Shown piece after piece: positions 2,970 to 6,331 of a stretch of 64,000 bases of DNA (the first letter of the stretch is position 1; each line of letters opens with the position of its first letter). The DNA is taken from assembly GCF_947494055.1 (NCBI RefSeq), contig NZ_CANLTR010000001.1, forward strand, positions 248,001 to 312,000, in the 5' to 3' direction. The stretch comes from an uncultured Jannaschia sp. (GTDB lineage: Bacteria; Pseudomonadota; Alphaproteobacteria; Rhodobacterales; Rhodobacteraceae). Below the pieces are notes generated by a model, which was not told the origin of the DNA, did not search any database, and worked only from the letters and a program-made list of their open reading frames with translations. Both the position numbers and the translations under genes were made by a program.

Positions 2970-3430
2970 ACGAAGTCCGCGATCGCGGCCACGTCGTTCA
3001 GATCCAGCACGTTCTGCGTCACCTCCGGGTCGCCGGCCGCGGCCACGGCCCGGATCGTCGGATCGTTCCGCGCGAGGGGCGCCCGGCCCGTCTCCGGCCG
3101 CCAGACCTCGATCCGCGGATGCCGCCCGGCCTTCCATCCCTCGGCCAGCACCACGTCGCAGGGTGCCAGACGGGTCAGGAGATGCGCGATGCCCGGTGCC
3201 CTCGCCTCCTCCATCAATGTCAGCCGCCGATCGGTCGCCAGCACGACCTGCTGCGCGCCGGCCATGCGGTGAAGGTGCGTGTCCGTCCCGGGCGTCTCCA
3301 GGTCGACGGCGTGATGCGTGTGCTTGAGCGTGGAGACCCGCAGGCCGCGGCGGGTGAGCTCGGTGACGAGCGCGGCGGTCAGCGTCGTCTTGCCGGCGTT
3401 CTTGTGTCCGACGATGCCCATCAGGATCAC
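2957..3430 (-). CDS. mobB: Molybdopterin-guanine dinucleotide biosynthesis adaptor protein MobB
   Basis: This is a small P-loop GTPase-like protein that assists MobA in making the guanine dinucleotide form of the molybdenum cofactor. The Walker A sequence GHKNAGKTTL lies near the N terminus, followed by STLKHTHHAVDL and VLAEGWKAGRHPRIEV, both typical of MobB. I chose the GTG at 3430. It overlaps the mobA stop as GTGA and has GGAGG 7 nt upstream, whereas the ATG at 3421 is 16 nt from that site. The product is about 157 aa, normal for the family. It is translationally coupled to mobA and overlaps moeA downstream. Confidence 0.88.
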   Translation of the reverse strand: MILMGIVGHKNAGKTTLTAALVTELTRRGLRVSTLKHTHHAVDLETPGTDTHLHRMAGAQQVVLATDRRLTLMEEARAPGIAHLLTRLAPCDVVLAEGWKAGRHPRIEVWRPETGRAPLARNDPTIRAVAAAGDPEVTQNVLDLNDVAAIADFVCST

Positions 3431-4035
3431 GCCATCGCCTCCGCCCGCGCCAGATCCTCGGGCGTGTTGACGTTGAAGAACGGGTCCCAGGGCTCGGTCG
3501 GGAACACCGCGAGCCCGGCCCCGTGCGCGTCGGTCCAGGCGACGATCTTGCGCGTGCCCGCCGCCAGCGCCGTGCGCAGGTCGTCCCGCAGCGCGACGGG
3601 CCAGAGGCCGAAGGTCGGCTGTGCCCGGACGCGGCCGTCCACCTCGGTCGCCGCGAGCGCGAAGCCGGATGGCGCGGCAGCGGCGAGCAGGCGCGGCACG
3701 AGGTCGGGCGGCAGGAACGGCGTGTCCGCGGCGGCCGTCACGATATGCGGGCAGCCCGTCGCCGCCGCCCAGTCGAGACCGGCGAGCACCCCCGCGAGCG
3801 GCCCCGGCCTGTCCGGCGCCTCGTCGGGGAGGACCGGCAGGCCCAGATCGGACCAACGGTCCGGCGCGCCGTTGGCGTTGAGCGCCAGTCGATCCACCTG
3901 CGGCGCCAGTCGGTCGACCACTCGTGCGACGAGCGACCGGCCCGACAGCATCAGTCGCCCCTTGTCGCCGCCGCCCATCCGCGTGGCCCGGCCCCCGGCC
4001 AGGATCACGCCATGCGGCTGCACCATGCCGCTCAT
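3427..4035 (-). CDS. mobA: Molybdenum cofactor guanylyltransferase MobA
   Basis: MobA transfers GMP from GTP to molybdopterin. The N-terminal nucleotidyltransferase signature ILAGGRATRMGGGDKGRL is intact, with the metal-binding region TAAADTPFLPPDL and the closing FFNVNTPEDLA. Length is 202 aa, usual for the family. The start ATG at 4035-4033 coincides with the left boundary of the IS110 insertion: the CAT at 4033-4035 is immediately inside the element next to its CT core. Before insertion this ATG would have overlapped the fdhD stop as ATGA. A chance AAGG lies 8-11 nt upstream inside the element and may now serve as the ribosome binding site. Expression may have changed because the gene is now cut off from fdhD. 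Confidence 0.93.
   Translation of the reverse strand: MSGMVQPHGVILAGGRATRMGGGDKGRLMLSGRSLVARVVDRLAPQVDRLALNANGAPDRWSDLGLPVLPDEAPDRPGPLAGVLAGLDWAAATGCPHIVTAAADTPFLPPDLVPRLLAAAAPSGFALAATEVDGRVRAQPTFGLWPVALRDDLRTALAAGTRKIVAWTDAHGAGLAVFPTEPWDPFFNVNTPEDLARAEAMA
4031..4035. repeat. CTCAT direct repeat, left side of the IS110 element
   Basis: CTCAT at 4031-4035 is repeated at 5503-5507 on the other side of the insertion. CT is the likely recombination core. The following CAT is shared by chance, or because target and donor resemble each other just after the core. Confidence 0.75.
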
Positions 4036-4047
4036 TGGTGCACCCTT

Positions 4048-4235
4048 CCCACTGGAAGCCTTACCGTTGTTGATGCGAGCCTTCTGCTTCCAGCGTCCCG
4101 TCGCGACGGCCCAGGGCGCTCGCCGCTCGACGGCCCGCATGAGACCCGCCGCGCGGCGGGCGCCGGGAGGATGCAATGGGCGACAGGCTGATCCGCCGTG
4201 GGCTGGCCCCCAGAGCGCCTGACAATGAGCTTCCC
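4048..4235 (+). ncRNA. Putative IS110 bridge RNA (limits approximate)
   Basis: The non-coding left end carries a 5' stem (CTGGAAGC at 4052-4059 with GCTTCCAG at 4086-4093) and GC-rich palindromes at about 4099-4110 and 4146-4161. It also has four guide-like segments. GCCGCT (4122-4127) equals the left target plus core (4027-4032). GCATGAG (4137-4143) is the reverse complement of core plus right target (5503-5509). ACAGGCTG (4183-4190) equals the element right end (5494-5501). CAATGAG (4223-4229) is the reverse complement of core plus element left end (4031-4037). Order (target loop, then donor loop) and polarity agree with the IS621-type bridge RNA. RNA ends and folding are inferred, not shown. 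Confidence 0.75.
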
Positions 4236-4286
4236 GCAGATCCTCTCGGCCGGAATAGATGTAACGCACACGGGAGGGATGATCCC

Positions 4287-5492
4287 ATGACTTTCGTGAT
4301 CGGACTTGACTGGGGCGGGGCGGCACACGCCGTCTGCGTGATTGATCGGAGCAGCGGCGCCGTGGTCGACCGTTTCGAGACGCGCCACGACGCTGGCGGC
4401 TTGCGCGATATGACACGCAGGCTCGCCCGGCACGGCGCGGCTGCAGATCTGCCCGTAGCAGTCGAACGGCCTTCGGGGTTGATCGTCGATGCACTGGTCG
4501 CAGCGGGCCTTCTGGTCGTGCCCATCTACCCGAACGCCGTCAAGGCCTCGCGCCCGCGCTACCGTGCCTCCGGGGCCAAAGACGATCGTGGCGATCCGTA
4601 CCTGCTGACCGATCTCTTGCGCACCGACGGGCACAGGTTCCGGCCGCTCCCTCCGCCCTCTGACGCGGTCCGCGCCCTGCGCACGCTGGTGCAAGGCCGC
4701 GACGACCTCGTCGCCGTCCGTGTGCAGCTTGCCAACCAGTTGCGCGCCTTGCTCGAAAGCTTCTGGCCCGGAGCCGCAGCGATCTTCGCCGACATAGACA
4801 GCCCCATCGCGCTGGTCTTCCTTGAGCGATATCCAACGCCCGACAGCGCCACGCGTGTGGGCGTGAAGCGCCTCGCAAGCTTCCTTGCCCAGTACCGCTA
4901 CACCGGCCGCCGCAGCCCGGAAGAGCTCCTCACCCGCCTGCGTGCCGCCCCCCAGGGCCTCGCTGGCCCCGCCGAGGCTGAAGCGAAGGGCGAAATGGTC
5001 CGCGCATTGGTCGCCTTTCTCGGTCCCCTCGTCGACAGCATCACGGATCTGTCTGCGCGCATCCGCCACAATGCTATCGCAAGCGAGGTCGGCCGCATTC
5101 TCATGAGCTTTCTTCGCGCGGGCCAACTCTGCGCTGTCCAGATCCTGGCCGAACTCGGCGAGGACCGTGCCCGATACCTGACCGCCGACCAGCTTGCCGC
5201 CGACGCAGGCCTCGCCCCAGTCATCAGACAGTCGGGCCGGTCGCGTGGGGTCTCCTTCCGGTGGGCCTGCAACAGACGTCTGCGCAAGGCGCTCACCTGC
5301 TTTGCAGACAACTCCCGCCACGCTTGCCCGTGGGCGGCATCCGTCTATCTCATGGCACGCGGTCGAGGATGCAGACATCCGCATGCTATCCGCATCCTCG
5401 GCCGCGCCTGGCTCCGCGTTCTCTGGCGCGCCTGGCAGGATCGGAAACCCTACTATCCGCTCCTGCACGGCGCTGCTCAAGCCATAGGTTGA
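4287..5492 (+). CDS. IS110-family transposase (RNA-guided DEDD recombinase)
   Basis: This is a 401-aa recombinase with an N-terminal RuvC-like DEDD domain and a C-terminal Tnp (transposase_20) domain. The acidic residues can be read as D8 (IGLDWGG), E60 (VAVERPSG), D100 and D103 (KDDRGDPYLL), with the spacing of characterised members. The C-terminal domain has LAADAGLAPVIRQSGRSRG followed by NRRLRKAL; the serine of QSG is the probable nucleophile by analogy. The ATG at 4287 follows GGGAGG with about 9 nt spacing, so upstream in-frame codons are left out. No stop or frameshift interrupts the gene, so the element looks potentially active. It probably uses the adjacent bridge RNA to choose its target. 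Confidence 0.93.
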   Translation: MTFVIGLDWGGAAHAVCVIDRSSGAVVDRFETRHDAGGLRDMTRRLARHGAAADLPVAVERPSGLIVDALVAAGLLVVPIYPNAVKASRPRYRASGAKDDRGDPYLLTDLLRTDGHRFRPLPPPSDAVRALRTLVQGRDDLVAVRVQLANQLRALLESFWPGAAAIFADIDSPIALVFLERYPTPDSATRVGVKRLASFLAQYRYTGRRSPEELLTRLRAAPQGLAGPAEAEAKGEMVRALVAFLGPLVDSITDLSARIRHNAIASEVGRILMSFLRAGQLCAVQILAELGEDRARYLTADQLAADAGLAPVIRQSGRSRGVSFRWACNRRLRKALTCFADNSRHACPWAASVYLMARGRGCRHPHAIRILGRAWLRVLWRAWQDRKPYYPLLHGAAQAIG

Positions 5493-5494
5493 CA
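5489..5494 (+). promoter_or_regulatory. TTGACA box at the IS110 right end (possible circle-junction -35)
   Basis: A perfect TTGACA overlaps the transposase stop codon and points outward, 8 nt before the CT core. In the circular form the right end joins the left end, which would place this -35 upstream of the bridge RNA. No clear -10 box is seen at 17-19 nt, so the promoter is tentative. Confidence 0.4.
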
Positions 5495-5502
5495 CAGGCT
5501 GT

Positions 5503-5507
5503 CTCAT
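5503..5507. repeat. CTCAT direct repeat, right side of the IS110 element
   Basis: Second copy of the repeat at 4031-4035. It contains the fdhD stop codon (TCA on the plus strand at 5504-5506). Confidence 0.75.
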
Positions 5508-6331
5508 GCCGCGTCCCAGACGACGCGGTCGGCGCCCGACAGGCAGACGAAGCGCGTGCCCTTCATCCGGCCGATCACCGTCAGCCCGACCTGCCGCGCG
5601 ATCTCCACCCCCCAGGCGGTGAAGCCCGAGCGCGAGACGAGCGACGGGATGCCCATCAGCGCGCACTTGATGATCATCTCCGACGTCAGCCGGCCGGTCG
5701 TGTAGAGCGTCTTGTCGCCCGGCGCGACGCCCTCCATCCGCATCCAGCCGGCCAGCTTGTCGACCGCGTTGTGCCGGCCGACATCCTCGAAATAGGCGAG
5801 CGGGTCCGGGCCGTGGCAGAGGCAGGTCCCGTGGATCGCGCCCGCCTCAAGATAGAGGCTGGGCGTCCGGTTGATCGCCGCCGACAGGGCCTGCAGGTCG
5901 GCGACATGCAACGGCGTCGCCGGCAGCGTCAGCCCCTCGAGCCCCGCCATCATGTCGCCGAAGACCGTTCCCACGGCGCAGCCCGAGGTGCGCGTCGCAC
6001 GCGCGAGCTTGGCCTCGTGATCCGTCTCCACCGCCGTGCGGACCACGACCGTCGCCAGCTCCTCGTCGTAGTCGATGCCCGTGACCGTGTCGGCGGCGCG
6101 CACCATCCCCTGATTGACGAGGAAGCCAAGGCCCAGCCATTCCGGATGATCGCCGATCGTCATCGCCGTCACGATCTCCCGCGAATTGAGGTAGATCGTC
6201 AGCGGCCGCTCCTCCACCACGCGCAGGTCGACGGGCGCGCCGGACTGGTCGCGCCCGGTCACGCCTCGGGTCAGGCGCGGATCGTCGGGGCGCGGGGCGA
6301 CGCGGAGGCTGGCGGGGGTTTCGGTGGACAC
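5504..6331 (-). CDS. fdhD: Formate dehydrogenase accessory sulfurtransferase FdhD
   Basis: FdhD carries sulfur from a cysteine desulfurase to the molybdenum cofactor of formate dehydrogenase. The 275-aa protein shows IYLNSREIVTAMTIGDHPEWL, GRHNAVDKLAGW and GRLTSEMIIKCALMGIP, all characteristic. The usual CxxC sulfur-relay motif reads SGCAVG here, keeping the first cysteine but with glycine at the second. The start is a GTG at 6331 with only a weak upstream AGG. The gene heads the operon with mobA-mobB-moeA, which the IS110 element now interrupts 3' of its stop codon. Confidence 0.92.
   Translation of the reverse strand: MSTETPASLRVAPRPDDPRLTRGVTGRDQSGAPVDLRVVEERPLTIYLNSREIVTAMTIGDHPEWLGLGFLVNQGMVRAADTVTGIDYDEELATVVVRTAVETDHEAKLARATRTSGCAVGTVFGDMMAGLEGLTLPATPLHVADLQALSAAINRTPSLYLEAGAIHGTCLCHGPDPLAYFEDVGRHNAVDKLAGWMRMEGVAPGDKTLYTTGRLTSEMIIKCALMGIPSLVSRSGFTAWGVEIARQVGLTVIGRMKGTRFVCLSGADRVVWDAA

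What the first reader, a model, noticed from the sequence alone, without database searches (positions are those of the whole stretch)
4048..4235. IS110 bridge RNA whose four guides can be read from a single copy
The left end of the IS110 element contains, in order, four short segments. GCCGCT (4122-4127) is identical to the left target plus CT core at 4027-4032. GCATGAG (4137-4143) is the reverse complement of CTCATGC at 5503-5509. ACAGGCTG (4183-4190) is identical to the right end at 5494-5501. CAATGAG (4223-4229) is the reverse complement of CTCATTG at 4031-4037. In the bridge RNA model of IS110/IS621, left guides match the top strand, right guides are its reverse complement, and the target loop precedes the donor loop. 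All four fit. The left guides are weaker: 6 nt for the left target, and the left donor match ends one base short of the core. Four independent matches in the right order and polarity inside 110 bp are unlikely by chance.
Basis: partly seen in the sequence, partly recalled or inferred. Interest (0 to 1): 0.9.

Follow-up and report, generated by a model that had tools for sequence, protein, structure and literature searches.

The report
Jumping DNA that spares its neighbours
A small mobile DNA element appears to use its own guide RNA to slip in exactly where one bacterial gene stops and the next starts, and it looks built so that protein-making can run straight through it and neither neighbouring gene is broken.

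Summary
Flank swapping among 10 related elements puts the guides at LTG 4112-4120, RTG 4137-4143, LDG 4183-4191 and RDG 4223-4229. A covariance model finds the RNA in 17 of 17 untrained relatives and 0 of 11 other IS110 loci.
The larger finding was not in the brief. The target is the ATGA stop-start overlap of fdhD and mobA; a near relative holds the empty site. fdhD keeps its TGA, and the IS end gives mobA a new ATG and an SD-like sequence. On the antisense strand a frame runs from the old start codon to a TGA overlapping the new one: in frame and open in 25 of 29 sites. Three of the four failures have disrupted transposases. The fourth (L014) has an intact one, but guides that match a site that is not a start codon. 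In the left end this frame is stop-free but its amino acids are not conserved. I propose a translation-transparent insertion; IS900 'hed' is the known precedent.

The parts
4031..5504 (+). IS110-group element, core CT to core CT (1472 bp from one core to the other)
   Evidence: Empty site in same-genus genome G311 (L041): 349 of 349 query bases aligned at 92% straight across the joint; the 25 bases just left of it differ at one position; single copy in own genome
4031..4032 (.). core dinucleotide CT, left
5503..5504 (.). core dinucleotide CT, right
4024..4032 (+). left target (CATGCCG-CT)
5503..5509 (+). right target (CT-CATGC); holds the original mobA start codon (CAT 5505-5507) and the fdhD stop (TCA 5504-5506)
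4093..4248 (+). bridge RNA: target-binding stem-loop then donor-binding stem-loop
   Evidence: RNAalifold and pair counts on 10 left ends; covariance model R1, 134 bits (the window is a training member), 17 of 17 non-training relatives found
4112..4120 (+). left target guide LTG, CAGGGCGCT (7 of 9 to left target)
   Evidence: best column of the left end, 0 of 2000 permutations; an LTG column is also best in the actinobacterial clade, 0 of 1000
   Evidence: helix 2: 97.5% of cells paired, 2 of 4 pairs with changes on both sides
4137..4143 (+). right target guide RTG, GCATGAG; carries the target's ATGA
4183..4191 (+). left donor guide LDG, ACAGGCTGA (right end has ACAGGCTGT)
4223..4229 (+). right donor guide RDG, CAATGAG (reverse complement of left end CTCATTG)
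4287..5492 (+). IS110 transposase, 401 aa (DEDD_Tnp_IS110 + Transposase_20)
   Evidence: E 4.8e-30 and 8.7e-13
4032..5507 (-). element-spanning antisense frame: old mobA ATG (5507-5505) to TGA (4034-4032), 491 codons, codon-on-codon against the transposase
   Evidence: same arrangement in 25 of 29 sites
4033..4035 (-). new ATG start codon for mobA supplied by the IS end; overlaps the TGA of the antisense frame (ATGA)
4042..4050 (-). Shine-Dalgarno-like GGGAAGGGT, 6 nt upstream of that ATG, inside the IS
3427..4035 (-). mobA-like NTP transferase gene, now starting inside the IS end
   Evidence: NTP_transf_3, E 4.7e-35 (on 3430-4029); 202 aa from the left-end ATG
5504..6331 (-). fdhD, stop codon TGA kept at the joint
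   Evidence: FdhD-NarQ, E 5.8e-67

Best explanation
It is an IS110-group insertion sequence whose bridge RNA is programmed to start codons of the form (A/G)TGA(G/C), most often the stop-start overlap between two genes of an operon. The recombinase joins the circular element at a CT core, so that the upstream gene keeps its stop codon and the downstream gene gets a new start codon and an SD-like sequence from the element's left end. The displaced start codon now opens a frame that runs antisense through the whole element and ends at a TGA overlapping the new start codon. I propose that ribosomes leaving the upstream gene reinitiate there, translate through the element, stop and reinitiate on the downstream gene, so that the operon stays translated, protected from Rho, and both genes keep working. 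Shown: ends, empty site, guide matches and their covariation, target position, new start codon, open frame. Inferred: transposition by the bridge RNA, translation of the antisense frame, protection from polarity.
For: Guides: own-versus-swapped tests in two clades; structure with compensatory pairs, 95.0% of 321 cells paired against 87.6 +/- 1.0 in shuffles, 0 of 500; model R1 in 17 of 17 untrained relatives, 0 of 11 control IS110 loci at E<=1. Target: empty site in G311; right flank open back >=80 codons and left ORF >=100 aa (or open to the contig end: L006, 54 aa) in 18 of the 25 two-ended sites (lengths), against 31 of 318 and 52 of 645 control sites; left proteins over a Pfam cut-off in 18 of 20 given (of 31), right proteins in 17 of 20 given (of 32); annotated CDS starts exactly at the left-end ATG in L134-L137. 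Frame: from NTG to the left-end stop in frame and open in 25 of 29 sites; in-register left-end frame open in 18 of 18 elements, the other five frames in 0 to 2 of 18; outside the bridge RNA 0 stops in 684 codons against 9 and 16 in the other antisense frames, while substitutions there are 71 synonymous against 63.5 expected at random, so no sign of amino-acid constraint. Natural contrast: L014, transposase open, has guides that match a non-start site (RTG 7 of 7 to GTCGTCA, LTG 8 of 9), and its antisense frame holds 6 stops.
Against: High-GC genes often lack stops in this antisense frame: 12 of 27 control genes of 350-450 codons have none, so the transposase part alone proves little. My end-finding patterns already contained CTCA or TGTCTC (alpha/beta) or TGTC/GTCA (actinobacterial), so the TGA seen at the ends (31 of 32 right ends) is only partly independent evidence. 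Sites seen are survivors, so selection as well as targeting could place them at start codons. Both Variovorax copies (L073, L074) have no long ORF at the joint on either side; L023, L025 and L014 have short left ORFs. Some actinobacterial targets are SD-preceded starts without a clear upstream gene end. The frame fails in L014, L027, L028 and L136. In 3 of 31 sites my list found no SD-like word. Copies and relatives are not independent: 12 clusters at 80% identity among 22 transposases; the 12 open actinobacterial sites include three copies each of two elements. The LDG test was not significant in the actinobacterial clade. In L004 the transposase is broken and the RTG matches only 4 of 7. No expression data.
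Confidence: 0.66

Rival explanations
1. Ordinary IS110 element with a bridge RNA; the antisense frame is a by-product of high GC and of codon use in the transposase, and start-codon targeting only reflects that other insertions were lost.
For: 12 of 27 control genes of 350-450 codons have no stop in that frame; surviving insertions are biased to harmless sites; the bridge RNA evidence needs nothing more.
Against: The left end is open in 18 of 18 in this one frame and in 0-2 of 18 in the other five; end lengths keep the register across open elements of 1469 to 1652 bp; the frame begins at the target's start codon and ends at the new one in 25 of 29. The right target guide itself carries (A/G)TGA in 9 of 10 alpha/beta elements and in 19 of 20 actinobacterial loci (the latter include identical copies).
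Confidence: 0.2
2. The antisense frame encodes a functional protein, as proposed for IS900 hed, and the element targets start codons in order to express it.
For: IS900 has an antisense ORF spanning the element without its own RBS or start codon, called hed, of unknown function (PMC8141618, passages; Doran 1997 seen only as a reference title). The frame here begins at the host's own start codon.
Against: No Pfam match at E<=1 in 5 of 5 antisense products given. Left-end substitutions fall evenly on codon positions (151/155/151) and are as synonymous as random change (71 against 63.5 outside the bridge RNA, 59 against 53.1 inside). The part over the transposase was not tested separately.
Confidence: 0.12
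3. The four matches are coincidental and the left end holds no guide RNA.
For: Single-sequence fold is no better than shuffles (z 0.36); no Rfam match at the gathering score in the window, and nothing related in a permissive scan of 3900-5700.
Against: Independent covariation with target in two clades, compensatory pairs, covariance model result.
Confidence: 0.02

Closest known systems
IS621 / IS110-group bridge RNA systems (PMC11208160, PMC11208158)
   Same: DEDD plus Transposase_20 protein, CT core, long left end with bridge RNA, order LTG, stem-loop, RTG, LDG, stem-loop, RDG, guide polarity
   Different: IS621 targets are REP elements (recalled); here the target is a start codon or stop-start overlap, the left end supplies a start codon and SD-like sequence, and an antisense frame spans the element
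IS900 and its hed frame (Mycobacterium avium subsp. paratuberculosis; PMC8141618, Doran 1997 as cited there)
   Same: IS110-type element, antisense ORF spanning the whole element with no start codon or RBS of its own, target at translation-initiation signals (title of Doran 1997)
   Different: IS900 target CATGNNNNNNTCTCCTT appears to split SD from start codon (my reading); here the joint lies in the start codon overlap, with TGA or TAATGA overlap at exit. I did no bridge RNA analysis of IS900 and did not compare its transposase
Translational coupling by ATGA overlaps (PMC6728339, abstract)
   Same: overlapping stop and start codons couple translation of neighbouring genes
   Different: described there for native gene pairs; here a mobile element rebuilds the overlap at both of its ends

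Membership tests
IS110 family, IS110 group | DEDD N-terminal domain and Transposase_20 C-terminal domain | tested here: met
IS110 family, IS110 group | non-coding left end longer than right end, bridge RNA in left end | tested here: met
   left end 256 nt from core to start codon; 13 nt, stop codon included, between the last sense codon and the right core; bridge RNA 4093-4248
IS110 family, IS110 group | target loop with LTG and RTG matching the insertion site | tested here: met
   window LTG only 7 of 9
IS110 family, IS110 group | donor loop with LDG and RDG matching the element's ends | tested here: met
   in the actinobacterial clade RDG met (P 0.008), LDG not significant
IS110 family, IS110 group | RNA-guided recombination through a circular intermediate | not testable with these tools
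   needs experiment
IS1111 group | bridge RNA in the right end | tested here: not met
   no room: 13 nt between last sense codon and right core; bridge RNA lies in the left end
IS1111 group | sub-terminal inverted repeats of 7-17 bp | not tested
   not searched
IS900-like elements with hed | antisense ORF spanning the element and started from host signals | tested here: met
   (sequence only; expression not tested)
IS900-like elements with hed | target CATGNNNNNNTCTCCTT | tested here: not met
   target CATGCCGCTCATGCCGCG
IS900-like elements with hed | transposase kinship with IS900 | not tested
   IS900 sequence was not fetched

The most novel reading that the evidence does not exclude
A bridge-RNA transposon lineage that is transparent to translation: its guide RNA carries the target's (A/G)TGA, and the whole element is kept as a product-free, stop-free antisense passenger cistron with stop-start coupling at both ends, so that it can sit inside operons without polarity; a member whose guide moved to a non-start site (L014) has lost the open frame.
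Probability: 0.6. Interest if true: 0.87.

Novelty: new variant of a known kind. Interest (0 to 1): 0.77.

Why it matters
It would explain how a mobile element can live in dense operons without harm, tie the target choice of a bridge RNA to a biological purpose, and offer a reading of the IS900 hed frame, described in 1997, as a ribosome path rather than a protein. It would also show natural bridge RNAs programmed to a kind of site that is common in bacterial genomes.

Tried and rejected
Rfam gathering scan of the window and permissive scan of 3900-5700: nothing relevant. Single-sequence folding: not informative. More copies in kin: besides the own genome none in 20 genus, 295 family, 390 order, 398 phylum and 385 class genomes at E<=1e-60 (the samples overlap, and in the larger ones only 4 to 6 first-look candidates per genome were scored). 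Phage records: none at 1e-30 with the window protein; one distant record with L011. Codon test: 4 antisense-stop codons against 102.7 expected from A-ending rates in 23 transposases, all 4 in L014. I do not lean on the 102.7, because control genes also fall far below such expectations (1.04 per 400 codons in 32 window genes, 1.60 in 86 genes of other loci); the genes there were picked by a GC-position rule, not a gene finder. The IS110 control ORFs were partly wrong frames, because a longest-ORF rule was used, so I do not use them as a control. I first called L014 degenerate; one search shows an open transposase and guides matching its own site, so that label is withdrawn. A notebook count of 26 of 29 open sites was wrong: one search showed L136 out of frame, so 25 of 29. 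A first regular expression for actinobacterial right ends found none; a second worked. Rows dropped: L007, L026, L038 and L070-L072 had no left end that I could place and are outside two-ended counts (L071 and L072 resemble L070); L009, L010 and L012 are cut at the left; L025 and L039 gave no right end; L029-L032, L034 and L035 are partial; L033 was not analysed; L139 gave a left end but no right end; L133 and L138 were not analysed for targets. The 18 left ends leave out L014, further copies of one element, and L134-L137; one search uses 17 elements and 10 pairs. No paper on stop-start targeting by IS110 was found in the listings; the library lacks most subscription journals.

Full report
THE OBSERVATION. 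The protein at 4287-5492 is an IS110-family transposase (PF01548 E 4.8e-30, PF02371 E 8.7e-13). The element lies between fdhD (5504-6331, minus) and a mobA-like gene (3427-4035, minus). In the same-genus genome G311 the two genes are contiguous: 349 of 349 query bases align at 92% straight across the joint, and the joint reads GGGACGCGGCATGAGCGGCATGG, fdhD stop and mobA start overlapping as ATGA. In the five other same-genus loci whose alignment spans the joint, that stretch is gapped or diverged and does not show the site. The element is single copy in its genome.

THE BRIDGE RNA. Fifteen left ends were first aligned (window plus 14 relatives). The 10 elements with both ends placed were used for a swap test: for each usable column of the left-end alignment, the segment ending there was matched with the element's own flank and with the flanks of the others. 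For all four DNA partners the best column lies where a bridge RNA guide is expected. A second, actinobacterial clade with a GT core gave the same answer for LTG and RTG (0 of 1000 permutations each) and for RDG (P 0.008), not for LDG. RNAalifold on 10 left ends finds two stem-loops. In 33 pairs chosen from it 95.0% of cells are paired (shuffles 87.6 +/- 1.0) with 28 cells changed on both sides (shuffles 10.0 +/- 2.6), both 0 of 500. The order stem, LTG, stem-loop, RTG is that of the IS621 target loop (PMC11208158, passages). A covariance model from 12 left ends found the RNA in 17 of 17 relatives that were not in it, E 3.7e-12 to 7.2e-6, and in 0 of 11 other IS110 loci at E<=1. Five near-identical Pseudonocardia copies have different flanks but share TCG-GT-CAT(C/T)G around the core, the behaviour expected of one guide with many targets.

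THE TARGET IS A START CODON. The right end is followed by (A/G)TGA read on the minus strand in 31 of 32 loci. This count is not fully independent, because the patterns by which I placed the ends contained CTCA, TGTCTC or TGTC. The coding context is independent. The gene on the right runs into that TGA; the gene on the left starts at an ATG or GTG that lies inside the element's left end, with an SD-like word upstream in 28 of 31 (the word list is mine). Examples, right gene | left gene: UvrD helicase | ABC ATPase (L002), MaoC-like | MaoC-like (L003), short-chain dehydrogenase | MarR (L004), HAD hydrolase | nucleotidyl transferase (L005), Rieske | cupin (L006), permease | permease (L019), permease | ABC ATPase (L020), oligopeptide ABC ATPase | oligopeptide ABC ATPase (L021). 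Of 31 left ORFs 20 were given to Pfam and 18 passed a cut-off; of 32 right flanks 20 were given and 17 passed. Of 11 plasmid stretches fetched with annotation (L070-L074, L133-L138), four (L134-L137) have a left CDS annotated from exactly the left-end ATG. In L074 the annotated left CDS starts at a second, left-end-like copy 65 bp further out. In the others the left end was not placed or analysed, or no annotated CDS abuts it. By a crude rule (right open back >=80 codons, left ORF >=100 aa, or open to the contig end as in L006) 18 of the 25 two-ended sites qualify, against 31 of 318 comparable sites in the window and 52 of 645 in 30 other loci. Failures are L073, L074, L023, L024, L013, L014 and L016 (contig end on the right). 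Left start alone: 26 of 31 against 122 of 318.

THE ANTISENSE FRAME. From the displaced start codon at the right end to the stop that overlaps or adjoins the new start codon in the left end, the minus strand is in frame and open in 25 of 29 two-ended sites: 10 of 10 of the alpha/beta-type, 12 of 15 actinobacterial (three copies each of two elements among the 12), 3 of 4 plasmid. In some, TAG or TAA stands just before the TGA (for example TAATGA in the three Streptomyces copies). The failures: L027 and L028, whose transposase stretch differs in length by one base; L136, transposase annotated as cut short; and L014. L014 is instructive: its transposase is open and its guides fit its own site (RTG 7 of 7 to GTCGTCA, LTG 8 of 9), but that site is not a start codon, the RTG lacks NTGA, and the antisense frame has six stops. 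One case only, but it is what a link between target and frame predicts. The frame is codon-on-codon with the transposase, and in GC-rich genes such a frame is often open by chance: 12 of 27 control genes of 350-450 codons. The non-coding left end is the better test. There the in-register frame is open in 18 of 18 elements (L014 not among them) while the other five frames are open in 2, 2, 1, 1 and 0; all 18 lengths are multiples of three. Outside the bridge RNA, in 17 elements, 684 codons hold no stop, against 9 and 16 stops in the other antisense frames. Yet the amino acids drift freely: over 11 pairs, differences fall 151/155/151 on the three codon positions, and over 10 pairs synonymous changes outside the RNA number 71 where random change would give 63.5. 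The frame is kept open; its product is not kept. Five antisense products have no Pfam match at E<=1.

HOW IT PROBABLY WORKS. ATGA overlaps couple translation of neighbouring genes (PMC6728339, abstract). An ordinary insertion there would cut the coupling and, by leaving untranslated RNA, invite Rho-dependent termination (established knowledge). This element keeps the upstream stop, opens a frame from the old start codon through its whole length, and ends that frame on a TGA overlapping a new start codon with an SD-like sequence. I infer that ribosomes pass through it and restart on the downstream gene. Not shown: expression, translation, recombination.

WHAT IS KNOWN. The bridge RNA mechanism is known (PMC11208160, passages and section 12; PMC11208158, passages). 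IS900 has an antisense frame over its whole length, hed, without its own start or RBS, and a target motif CATGNNNNNNTCTCCTT (PMC8141618, passages; Doran 1997 seen as a title only). What I did not find in the listings is a bridge RNA programmed to stop-start overlaps, an element that rebuilds the overlap at both ends, or evidence that such a frame is selected for openness and not for product. Hence new variant of a known kind.

Noticed in passing
L074:1168-1233: A second left-end-like stretch (first 17 nt identical, CTCATAAGGCAACCTCC) lies 65 bp outside the Variovorax element's left end, and the annotated alpha/beta hydrolase CDS starts at its ATG (1172), as if a copy had inserted at the left end of an earlier, lost copy.
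   Followed up: partly
L014:2778-4244: A relative whose guides fit a non-start site has an open transposase but a broken antisense frame: a natural contrast to the rest.
   Followed up: partly
L103, L105, L114, L119, L122: Distant actinobacterial IS110 transposases (27-30% identity) also lack any sense codon that would be an antisense stop, though model R1 does not find the RNA there; the open antisense frame may be wider than this subfamily.
   Followed up: partly
own genome G000, L091-L102: Twelve places match the IS110 N-terminal domain in the host genome; only one is this element.
   Followed up: no
L004: The transposase has an internal TAG and the RTG matches only 4 of 7, yet the antisense frame is still open end to end.
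   Followed up: partly
L136: A relative with a disrupted transposase sits between the annotated sctT and the EscU/YscU/HrcU-type gene of a Mesorhizobium plasmid, with the left gene annotated from the left-end ATG.
   Followed up: partly
L003:4188-4394: From the last matched transposase codon to the right core there are 206 nt, against 11-62 in the other 17 elements measured, but the antisense register is kept.
   Followed up: partly
PMC3706429, mycobacteriophage Omega: The paper (passages) reports an IS110-like insertion with a 5-bp CACTG duplication; left ends of part of the actinobacterial clade here read GT-CACTG, so Omega may carry a member.
   Followed up: no
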